From positions 1-64,000 of the forward strand of contig SCKN01000006.1 in NCBI GenBank assembly GCA_004124385.1: a stretch of 64,000 bases of DNA, read 5' to 3'. Each line of letters opens with the position of its first letter. Position 1 is the first letter of the stretch. The translations under genes and the position numbers were made by a program. Below, one piece after another: positions 204 to 19,089 of this stretch. The notes beneath the pieces are model-generated. The model was not told the DNA's origin. It worked only from the letters and a program-made list of their open reading frames with translations, and ran no database searches. The DNA is from Fidelibacterota bacterium (GTDB taxonomy: Bacteria; Fidelibacterota; Marinisomatia; Marinisomatales; TCS55).

Positions 204-308
204 TCACGGTTTTAATTCGTAGCGTACATCTGGATTCTCGGAGTGTGGCTCATAATCTCCCCAGAATTCTTCAGCAAAATTCAGGCCGGCCTTTTCCATA
301 ACACGAAT
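204..308 (-). pseudogene. C-terminal fragment of a GNAT (RimJ-like) acetyltransferase
   Basis: The minus-strand frame ending at the stop codon 206-204 reads [20 protein letters not shown] and then about 15 more residues ending RYELKP. The 'S-I-R-V-M-E-K-x-G' motif and following strands are typical of the end of RimJ/RimL-type GNAT N-acetyltransferases, where the acetyl-CoA site is completed. Nothing upstream in this frame supplies the rest of the domain; instead the sequence runs into the repeat lipoprotein in another frame. A matching N-terminal GNAT fragment lies at about 5975-6313 on the same strand in the right order, so this is probably the other end of one broken gene. It cannot encode a functional enzyme alone. 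Confidence 0.7.
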
Positions 309-1350
309 GGAACTGTATTCCCTTCTGAATCTGTTTTGATTAACCATACATCCCAATCACCATTTCCGAAAGATTCTGTATACCCTGTTATGATATATCC
401 ACCATCTGTGGTCTGTTCAACGGACCAACCCCAATTATAACTACTTCCACCAAAGGTTTGATTCCACTCCTCATTACCATTGGAATCTGTCTTGATTAAC
501 CACACATCTATTAAACCATTCCCGAAAGATTCTGTACCACCTGTTATGATATATCCACCATCTGTGGTCTGTTCAACGGAAGAACCTCTATCATAATCAC
601 TTCCACCAAAGGTTTGGTTCCAATCTTCATTTCCATTTGAATCAGTCTTGATTAACCAGACATCATCACCACCATTCCCGAAAGATTCTGTTAAACCTGT
701 TATGATATATCCACCATCTGTGGTCTGTTCAACGGAATAACCCCTATCATAACTACTTCCACCAAAGGTCTGATTCCATACTTCGTCTCCATTCGAATCT
801 GTTTTGATTAACCAGACATCCCAACCACCATTCCCGAAGAGATTCTGTTACCTGTTATGATATATCCACCATCTGTGGTCTGTTCAACGGAATAACCATA
901 ATCATTACTACTTCCACCAAAGGTCTGATTCCACTCTTCATTCCCTTGTGAATCAGTTTTAATTAACCAGACATCATATTCACCATTTCCGAAAGATTCT
1001 GTACCACCTGTAATAATATATCCACCATCGGTGGTCTGTTCAACGGAATAACCCCTATCATAACTACTTCCACCAAAGGTCTGATTCCATACTTCGTCTC
1101 CATTGGAATCTGTTTTGATTAACCAGATATCAAAATCACCATTCCCGAAAGACTCTGTAAAACCTGTTATGATATATCCACCATCTGTGGTTTGTTGAAC
1201 AGAATACCCACCATCATAATCACCTCCCCCAAAGGTTTTTACAAATACTACAGTTTCTTCAGTCGTTTCGATACTCGTATCTTCTTTCTCATCATCACAA
1301 CCAACAAAAAGAAACAAAAGAGGTATTATCAGTAATAATGTTTTATTCAT
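281..1350 (-). pseudogene. Frameshifted lipoprotein made of ~51-residue beta-type repeats
   Basis: The product starts MNKTLLLIIPLLFLFVGC, a lipoprotein signal peptide with a plausible lipobox ending in Cys18, followed by an acidic linker. About six tandem repeats of ~51 residues follow, each with the pattern TFGG-S[39 protein letters not shown]. Such repeats are seen in secreted or surface proteins and probably form propeller-like beta structure; that is inference. The frame from 1350 breaks in the fourth repeat near 838-856, where the DNA copy is one base shorter than its sister repeats. The repeat frame resumes and stays open down to 281, where it leaves the repeat pattern and runs over the GNAT remnant. 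It is either a pseudogene or carries one sequencing indel; its 3' end is also lost. Confidence 0.75.
330..1230 (-). repeat. Tandem ~153-bp DNA repeats inside the lipoprotein gene
   Basis: Near-identical blocks such as TATATCCACCATCTGTGG, CCACCAAAGGT and CCCGAAAGATTCTGTA recur at about 153-155-bp intervals (around 395, 550, 705, 860, 1015 and 1170). Identity between copies is high at the DNA level, suggesting recent duplication or gene conversion, and makes this array a likely site of copy-number change and of assembly collapse. Confidence 0.85.
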
Positions 1351-17929: not shown

Positions 17930-17945
17930 AATATCTCCGTGTAAT

Positions 17946-18015
17946 AAAAAACCCCCGGGCAGCATCAAGTTCCACATTATTGCGAAACTACTGAACGGAG
18001 GTCCATTTGCTGCCC
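17946..18015 (-). terminator. Attenuator (terminator) in the pyr operon leader
   Basis: On the minus strand GGGCAGCA (18015-18008) pairs exactly with TGCTGCCC (17964-17957), closing a branched stem that includes AGTTTC/GGAACT, and is followed by GGGGG and six T. It lies just upstream of the pyrR ribosome-binding site, the expected place for PyrR-controlled attenuation. Confidence 0.8.
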
Positions 18016-18019
18016 TTCT

Positions 18020-18037
18020 CGCCCTCACAGGAGCGTT
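18020..18037 (-). promoter_or_regulatory. PyrR-binding RNA hairpin
   Basis: The leader RNA contains CGCUCCUGUGAGGGCG. It folds into a 5-bp hairpin whose loop region (18032-18023) matches the known PyrR recognition pattern UCC-N-G-N-GAGG, followed by GCGAGAAGGG. In Bacillus this anti-antiterminator, stabilised by PyrR-UMP, lets the downstream terminator form. The match, position and adjacent pyrR support the same mechanism here. Confidence 0.75.
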
Positions 18038-18123
18038 TTAAAGGGTCAATTCGAAAGTAAATTTATCCTTTAATCTTAGTTAATAAAAGAATAAATGTAG
18101 AGAATATGGTTTGAATAATCGCG

Positions 18124-19089
18124 TTATTGATTGGCGAACTTATTCCACACCAAAATGATTTCATCGGCTATATCATCCATACTTCCAAATTTTTCTATAT
18201 CAATCTCAACCGGATTTCCACGATTTCTAAACCACGTATATTGACGTTTGGCAAATTGTCGAGTCCGAATTACAATTTCCTCTTCCAATTCTTCTATGGA
18301 ATATTCACCATCCAAATATTGGCAAATTTGGCGATACCCAATTGAATTTAACGCGTGAGCTTTTTCAACAGAATAATTTTCACGTAATACTTTTGTTTCT
18401 TCAATCCAACCATTCTCCAACATACTTTTTGTCCGTTCCCTGATTCGATTTATTAACAGCTGCCTCTCCATTGAAAGTAATACAGTAAAGATTGAATGCC
18501 TGCCCGCCTGTCTACCGGCAGATAGGAATGGTTGATTGGATGTTTGTTCTTTAAAATGCTCTGTAGGAATTTTGCCCGTAATTTCAACTATTTCCAACGC
18601 TCGAATAAGTCTCTTCTTATTATTAATATGCACTTTTTCAGCATAGTCTGGATCAATATCTTTCAGTTTTTTCAACATAACATCCGGTGCTTCGTCATAT
18701 TCTCTACTTAATCGCTCTCTTATGTCCGGATTTGTTTTACTCTCTTTAAATATACCTAATGTTAGGGCATCTAAATACAAACCAGCTCCGCCGCAAAGAA
18801 TGGGTTCTTTTCCTTTATTTTGTATTTTACCTACAATATCTTTTACCAAATCAGCATATTCGCCGGCAGATACAGTTTCATTGGGTTCCCGAATTGATAT
18901 AAGATGATGTGGAATACTATTTACTTCTTCCAAGGTAGGTTGAGCTGTTCCAATTGACATTCCTTTATAGATCTGTCGAGAATCAAGACCAATTATTTCG
19001 CCATTTATTTTTTTGGCTACTGCAATGGCAACAGACGTTTTCCCTACAGCTGTAGGGCCAACAATGGCAAGTATTGGATTTTCTGACAT
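18124..19089 (-). CDS. miaA: tRNA dimethylallyltransferase
   Basis: The 321-residue enzyme adds a dimethylallyl group to A37 of tRNAs reading UNN codons. The P-loop is GPTAVGKTS (11-19), followed by GLDSRQIYKGMSIGTAQP and the catalytic region CGGAGLYLDALTLG. LLSMERQLLINRIRERTKSML and the C-terminal RTRQFAKRQYTWFRNR complete the family. Residues about 189-199 (LSAGRQAGRHS) are an insertion encoded by an imperfect palindrome and fall between conserved segments, probably on a surface loop. The gene stands apart from the pyr leader and is divergent from the kinase fusion. Confidence 0.94.
   Translation of the reverse strand: MSENPILAIVGPTAVGKTSVAIAVAKKINGEIIGLDSRQIYKGMSIGTAQPTLEEVNSIPHHLISIREPNETVSAGEYADLVKDIVGKIQNKGKEPILCGGAGLYLDALTLGIFKESKTNPDIRERLSREYDEAPDVMLKKLKDIDPDYAEKVHINNKKRLIRALEIVEITGKIPTEHFKEQTSNQPFLSAGRQAGRHSIFTVLLSMERQLLINRIRERTKSMLENGWIEETKVLRENYSVEKAHALNSIGYRQICQYLDGEYSIEELEEEIVIRTRQFAKRQYTWFRNRGNPVEIDIEKFGSMDDIADEIILVWNKFANQ
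18498..18526. repeat. Palindromic insertion inside the miaA coding region
   Basis: The 20-base segment 18507-18526 is a near-perfect palindrome centred on CCGG, with arms CCTGTCT and AGATAGG. It is preceded by GC-rich CCTGCCCG, unlike the AT-rich surroundings. It inserts in frame, encoding SAGRQAGR-type residues. I see no second copy in this window. Confidence 0.6.

What the first reader, a model, noticed from the sequence alone, without database searches (positions are those of the whole stretch)
18498..18526. Palindromic DNA element inserted in frame in miaA
An imperfect CCGG-centred palindrome encodes SAGRQAGR in a non-conserved loop of MiaA, while surrounding DNA is AT-rich. This resembles protein-coding palindromic elements (as in Rickettsia) that invade genes in frame.
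Basis: partly seen in the sequence, partly recalled or inferred. Interest (0 to 1): 0.52.

Follow-up and report, generated by a model that had tools for sequence, protein, structure and literature searches.

The report
Cross-phylum palindrome inserted inside miaA
A short G+C-rich palindromic DNA sequence has slipped into the tRNA-modification gene miaA without breaking it, and near-identical palindromes sit between genes in several bacterial phyla and, mostly readable as the same short peptide, inside essential genes of tiny Patescibacteria.

Summary
Observation confirmed; interpretation mostly right. Window 18507-18526 holds CCTGTCTACCGGCAGATAGG in miaA (18124-19089, minus), read FLSAGRQAGR in a loop predicted disordered. 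None of 29 aligned orthologues has it; one from a sister genus carries a different G+C-rich palindromic insert in the same loop. The genome holds five copies of CCTRYCTRCCGGYAGRYAGG (at most 2 mismatches; mirrored control 0); a second lies in frame in a yidD-like gene whose relatives lack it, three lie outside genes.

The family crosses phyla. In two related high-copy genomes copies are mostly intergenic. In Patescibacteria 28 of 41 sampled copies lie in ORFs of at least 150 aa (GroEL, SHMT, CysRS and others), 24 of 28 in one frame, xLPAGRQx or xLSAGRQx. A close GroEL pair shows an insertion of exactly 21 bp.

It works like Rickettsia palindromic elements and REPs but lacks tested marks of each: no 100-bp unit, no GTAG/CGTC tag, no linked RAYT, no target duplication. 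How it moves is unknown. My searches found no description in print. The miaA copy itself is diverged: four transitions, weak hairpin, unresolved boundaries.

The parts
18124..19089 (-). miaA, tRNA dimethylallyltransferase, 321 aa, intact; host gene of the insertion
   Evidence: invariant MiaA columns in the alignment
18507..18526 (.). 20-bp imperfect palindrome CCTGTCTACCGGCAGATAGG (coding strand CCTATCTGCCGGTAGACAGG); its first base on the coding strand is the third base of codon 188, the same phase as xLPAGRQx
18498..18506 (-). G+C-rich tail CGGGCAGGC next to the palindrome; part of the insert by composition, boundary not proven
18502..18537 (-). codons 185-196, predicted disordered loop (pLDDT under 50) between helix 175-184 and strand 200-206

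Best explanation
A copy of a short (about 21 bp) non-autonomous palindromic repeat, shared by several bacterial phyla, inserted into miaA. It survived because its length and lack of stop codons in that frame keep the gene open and because it fell in a flexible loop away from conserved residues. SHOWN: the insert; its absence from aligned orthologues; other copies in this genome, one more in frame; the cross-phylum family; a 21-bp filled/empty pair in GroEL; the preferred reading frame. INFERRED: that the miaA copy descends from this family (it differs from consensus by four transitions), that it is neutral for MiaA, and that selection rather than targeting explains the frame. UNKNOWN: the enzyme or process that moves it. 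Absence of target duplications and of linked Y1 transposase genes argues against an ordinary DDE-type MITE and against a classic REPtron. My best guess is single-strand hairpin insertion during replication or repair, or in-trans mobilisation by a Y1-type enzyme.
For: Own genome: 5 copies with at most 2 mismatches, control 0. MiaA alignment: insert absent from 29 other orthologues, and a different insert in the same loop in G006. Second own copy in frame in a yidD-like ORF read GLPAGRQG; five relatives' ORFs begin with the signal-peptide stretch and lack it. Patescibacteria: 25 of 57 genomes carry 99 exact copies, control 1 of 57; 24 of 28 copies in long ORFs share one phase, binomial P 1.6e-8; Pfam confirms housekeeping hosts. 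GroEL: a 93%-identical relative lacks exactly seven codons. SHMT and CysRS show clean seven-residue gaps against solved structures. MiaA loop 185-196 has pLDDT under 50. No target duplication; no palindrome near 20 Y1_Tnp regions.
Against: The miaA copy is diverged and folds weakly. The MiaA loop varies in length anyway (by eye, 13-19 residues in five close relatives against 21 here), so boundaries and insert length are not resolved, and one solved MiaA (3crm) aligns across the insert without a gap. Several exact hits of the pattern in the GTDB scan are ordinary coding sequence (TYLPVDR in L056, L072, L076; similar in L060, L074) or another repeat (seven Gemmataceae loci). Of six further hosts compared with solved structures, only SHMT and CysRS gave a clean seven-residue gap; Tgt gave 4, YchF 6+4, GroEL 8+4, TIM none. 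Y1_Tnp presence goes with palindrome presence (12 of 14 against 8 of 27 genomes, P 0.0009), which leaves a mobilising Y1 enzyme possible.
Confidence: 0.82

Rival explanations
1. It is a REP element moved by a RAYT (REP-associated Y1 tyrosine transposase), with intragenic copies as accidents.
For: Mostly intergenic and high-copy in G026 and G039 (49 and 93 copies). Own genome and 19 of 40 relatives have Y1_Tnp; presence of both goes together. No target duplication, as expected of Y1 enzymes (recalled knowledge).
Against: No copy with at most 3 mismatches near any of 20 Y1_Tnp regions fetched. No GTAG or CGTC tag. Copies occur in G003 and G005, which have no Y1_Tnp hit (both incomplete assemblies). 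No strong flanking target motif.
Confidence: 0.2
2. A chance G+C-rich stretch in a variable loop of MiaA, unrelated to any element.
For: The loop varies in length and sequence; the copy has two mismatched pairs and folds weakly.
Against: 1 of 300 simulated windows had such a match to the independent consensus; same reading frame and peptide as the other in-frame copies; local composition break.
Confidence: 0.08
3. The palindrome is a functional DNA signal (terminator, uptake sequence, protein-binding site) kept by selection and not a mobile element.
For: Sequence shared across phyla; mostly intergenic outside Patescibacteria.
Against: No T-run in the unit; copies between tandem genes lie no nearer to the upstream stop (10 of 20 in G026, 8 of 16 in G039); low and patchy copy number; present or absent between close relatives.
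Confidence: 0.1
4. Metagenome assembly or adapter artefact.
For: Most carriers are MAGs.
Against: Also in records titled as named strains (Seonamhaeicola aphaedonensis CECT 8487, Draconibacterium aestuarii Z1-6), in frame in genes, and with diverged variants.
Confidence: 0.01

Closest known systems
Rickettsia palindromic elements (RPE) and Wolbachia coding palindromes
   Same: Palindromic DNA found in frame inside conserved protein genes, typically in unstructured segments, plus intergenic copies (passages in PMC2229807, and PMC2996958).
   Different: RPE described as 105-146 bp and Rickettsia-specific; here about 21 bp (seven codons in GroEL), same sequence in several phyla, including free-living and very small-genome bacteria.
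REP elements, GTAG and CGTC super-families (PMC3733652)
   Same: 20-40 bp palindromes, multi-phylum, mostly intergenic, some intragenic; CGTC REPs likewise lack a linked transposase.
   Different: No terminal GTAG or CGTC motif; the centre is a near-perfect palindrome; stems begin CC/GG rather than AT.
PARCEL (palindromic amphipathic repeat coding elements, PMC2996958)
   Same: Palindromic coding DNA spread across distant microbes.
   Different: PARCELs are tandem protein repeats, largely of membrane proteins; this is mostly a single short insert in housekeeping enzymes.
ERIC/RU-1, Correia and other MITEs
   Same: Short non-autonomous repeats, sometimes fused in frame.
   Different: Those are about 100-200 bp, several with target duplication; none seen here.

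Membership tests
Rickettsia palindromic element (RPE) | palindromic DNA in frame in conserved protein genes | tested here: met
Rickettsia palindromic element (RPE) | unit of 105-146 bp with terminal inverted repeats | tested here: not met
   21-bp insertion in the GroEL pair; size from PMC2229807 passages
Rickettsia palindromic element (RPE) | restricted to Rickettsia | tested here: not met
   Omnitrophota, Bacteroidota, Patescibacteria and other records
GTAG REP | unpaired GTAG at one end | tested here: not met
   consensus and flank composition
GTAG REP | REPs flank a RAYT gene | tested here: not met
   0 of 20 Y1_Tnp regions; only part of the Y1 hits listed were fetched
CGTC REP | terminal CGTC (or TGTC, CCTC), AT at the first stem positions, loop of 4-5 bp | tested here: not met
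   some G026 copies carry CGTC at the centre, not at the end
DDE-type MITE | target-site duplication | tested here: not met
   2-5 bp flanks in four groups (40, 33, 14, 24 copies) no commoner than in shuffles
any mobile element | transposition observed | not testable with these tools
   needs an experiment or population sequencing

The most novel reading that the evidence does not exclude
One seven-codon palindromic coding element, read in a preferred frame as LPAGRQG, moves horizontally among several bacterial phyla and repeatedly colonises essential genes in Patescibacteria and in this lineage: a cross-phylum counterpart of the Rickettsia palindromes in non-rickettsial bacteria, spreading without a recognisable transposase.
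Probability: 0.55. Interest if true: 0.78.

Novelty: new variant of a known kind. Interest (0 to 1): 0.62.

Why it matters
Coding palindromes are described from Rickettsia, Wolbachia and one archaeon (passages read). A single 21-bp version shared across phyla, in frame in GroEL, SHMT or CysRS, would make the old question of how selfish DNA enters essential genes testable with many filled and empty sites, and warns that LPAGRQ or LSAGRQ peptides in predicted proteins can be insertions rather than domains. The high intragenic load in Patescibacteria (25 of 37 against 9 of 88 elsewhere) is unexplained.

Tried and rejected
RAYT linkage: rejected as cis-linked, since none of 20 fetched Y1_Tnp regions holds the palindrome, although presence of both goes together. 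Terminator reading: no orientation or 3'-side bias in G026 and G039. Target duplication and target motif: none. Arm covariation: weak (mean paired fraction 0.89 against 0.873 when arms are shuffled; only pair 5-16 clearly covaries); that set of 233 copies pooled every locus held, including viral contigs and the Gemmataceae repeat, and is not used as evidence. Viral vehicle: 43 exact stretches in IMG/VR, not examined further. The 3-mismatch match C2:4899 (L007) lies in an ORF whose reading around it looks ordinary and was dropped as probable chance. In one search the Gemmataceae loci and several loci with ordinary coding matches were left out of the 'GTDB other' group, but L159 (ordinary coding, from the same genome as L056) was in it; gene calls there are a longest-ORF rule. 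Ogata et al. 2002 was not held, so RPE features come from passages of other papers. In-print searches that found no description of this palindrome or of LPAGRQ inserts: (listings and abstract starts only, apart from passages read of PMC2229807, PMC2635572, PMC3733652 and PMC2996958).

Full report
WHAT IS THERE. miaA runs from 19089 down to 18124 (321 aa) and matches PF01715 at E 5.6e-78. On the coding strand the stretch reads TTC CTA TCT GCC GGT AGA CAG GCG GGC AGG CAT (F188-H198). The palindrome CCTATCTGCCGGTAGACAGG starts at the third base of codon 188. The stretch is 69% G+C where the neighbourhood is 36%. The AlphaFold model (mean pLDDT 87.6, alignment of 27 orthologues) puts residues 185-196 below pLDDT 50, between helix 175-184 and strand 200-206.

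CHANCE. Against the consensus CCTGCCTGCCGGCAGGCAGG, which does not depend on this copy, the window has one match with at most 4 mismatches, and 1 of 300 Markov windows did. The four differences from consensus are all transitions. In the whole 2.09-Mb genome CCTRYCTRCCGGYAGRYAGG gives 5 places with at most 2 mismatches and 6 with at most 3; the mirrored control gives none.

ORTHOLOGUES. 38 of 41 genomes of the order have a MiaA match; 30 proteins were aligned (the other 8 genomes had no locus fetched). None of the 29 others has SAGRQAGR. G006, from a sister genus, carries GRQSQHDGQVIPPRRAGNQ in the same loop, encoded by about three 22-bp units that contain GACGGGCAGG; the first lies in a related palindrome (2 mismatches to CCTGCCCGTCGTGGCGGGCAGG). 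Its congener G013 lacks it. So the same loop was probably invaded twice, though shared ancestry of part of the insert is not excluded. The loop varies in length even without inserts, and 3crm aligns without a gap, so length alone proves little here.

OTHER OWN COPIES. C4:65604 lies in frame in a 237-aa ORF with a YidD domain (E 2.1e-16), reading GLPAGRQG near the N-terminus. Five relatives of that gene (L199-L203) have a 202-211-aa ORF and begin with the signal-peptide stretch directly. C5:316854 and C2:33156 are outside long ORFs; C5:297290 follows a tRNA-like 3' end.

RELATIVES. With at most 2 mismatches 14 of 41 genomes have copies; G026 has 49 and G039 has 93. There 0 of 26 and 2 of 19 examined copies lie inside called genes; in the own family 3 of 22 (greedy ORF calls of at least 120 aa).

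OTHER PHYLA. An exact scan of GTDB genomes with CCTRTCTRCCGGYAGAYAGG gave 35 stretches. Some are not the element: TYLPVDR-type coding matches in L056, L072, L076 (similar L060, L074) and a separate longer Gemmataceae repeat in seven loci. All five loci titled as Patescibacteria lineages (L062, L063, L065, L066, L084) are in frame, reading LSAGRQ or LSTGRQ, in genes that Pfam places as a pseudouridine synthase, a Mg-chelatase/ChlI-type protein, GroEL, RNase J and Tgt. Twenty carrier genomes hold 1-272 copies with at most 1 mismatch, control 0 in all 20. Around one Patescibacteria genome 25 of 57 genomes hold 99 exact copies, control 1 of 57; that these relatives are Patescibacteria is inferred, since kinship was not shown.

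READING FRAME. Of 41 sampled Patescibacteria copies (exact matches in the loci fetched, a part of all copies counted there), 28 lie in ORFs of at least 150 aa; 24 are read xLPAGRQx or the like, 2 and 2 in the other frames (P 1.6e-8 against one third). Pfam names hosts such as TsaD, class-I tRNA synthetases, PfkB, SHMT, class-II aldolase, RecJ, TIM, a DnaX-like AAA protein, CysRS, YchF, formyltransferase, UvrB and ProRS; three of the ORFs scanned had no family. The GroEL insert is a clean filled/empty case: L231, 93% identical, reads KEK-GDL where L230 reads EEKGLSAGRQGDL, a difference of exactly seven codons. Against solved structures, SHMT and CysRS show seven-residue gaps, Tgt four, YchF six plus four, GroEL eight plus four, TIM none. 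Why this frame dominates is not shown; the alternatives encode cysteine or, in some variants, stops, so selection is the simplest reading.

LOAD. 25 of 37 Patescibacteria copies lie in called genes, against 9 of 88 in the other groups (P 2e-10); the coding share of the fetched DNA was 0.79 against 0.66-0.82. The groups were sampled by different routes, and copies are not independent.

MECHANISM. No flanking duplication of 2-5 bp and no strong flanking motif. The consensus folds as a DNA hairpin (-8 kcal/mol, z -2.25) and the miaA copy poorly, as expected of an old, drifting insert. I favour neutral insertion by an unidentified process, possibly via the hairpin.

KNOWN KINDS. Described coding palindromes (RPE, Wolbachia, Methanocaldococcus) are in-frame insertions in unstructured segments of housekeeping proteins (passages); REPs are 20-40 bp and sometimes intragenic, CGTC REPs without transposase. 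This family resembles both and does not meet either definition on the features tested. My paper searches covered open-licence full texts only and found no description.

Noticed in passing
L002 (G000:C4:65604-65623): A second in-frame copy in the same genome, in a yidD-like gene, with a longer G+C-rich context (GAGGAGGG...GGGATTTAGGGGTGGTGG) partly shared with the intergenic copy L005.
   Followed up: partly
L012 (G006 MiaA): A sister-genus MiaA carries about three 22-bp G+C-rich units in the same loop; each unit is read in a different frame, yet the ORF stays open.
   Followed up: partly
L061, L067, L070, L077, L082, L085, L087: A Gemmataceae genome carries a longer palindrome, GGGGCAGACATTCCTGTCTGCCGGCAGACAGGAATGTCTGCCCC, probably an unrelated repeat with the same core.
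   Followed up: no
L090 (G006:C163:1806): The palindrome sits near the end of a DUF772 transposase ORF just after GDKIY, apparently cutting the transposase short.
   Followed up: no
window 17938-18060 (minus strand): Between miaA and the pyrR-pyrB-pyrC genes lies a G+C-rich hairpin-like stretch followed by a T-run on the minus strand; it may be a pyr leader attenuator.
   Followed up: no
window 208-1286: Direct repeats with a period of about 156 bases (five copies), perhaps a repeat protein gene.
   Followed up: no
L042, L089 (G016): Palindrome copies lie among direct repeats containing CCTTCGGCACAAATAATGGATT, with GGTTC/GAACC extending the palindrome.
   Followed up: no
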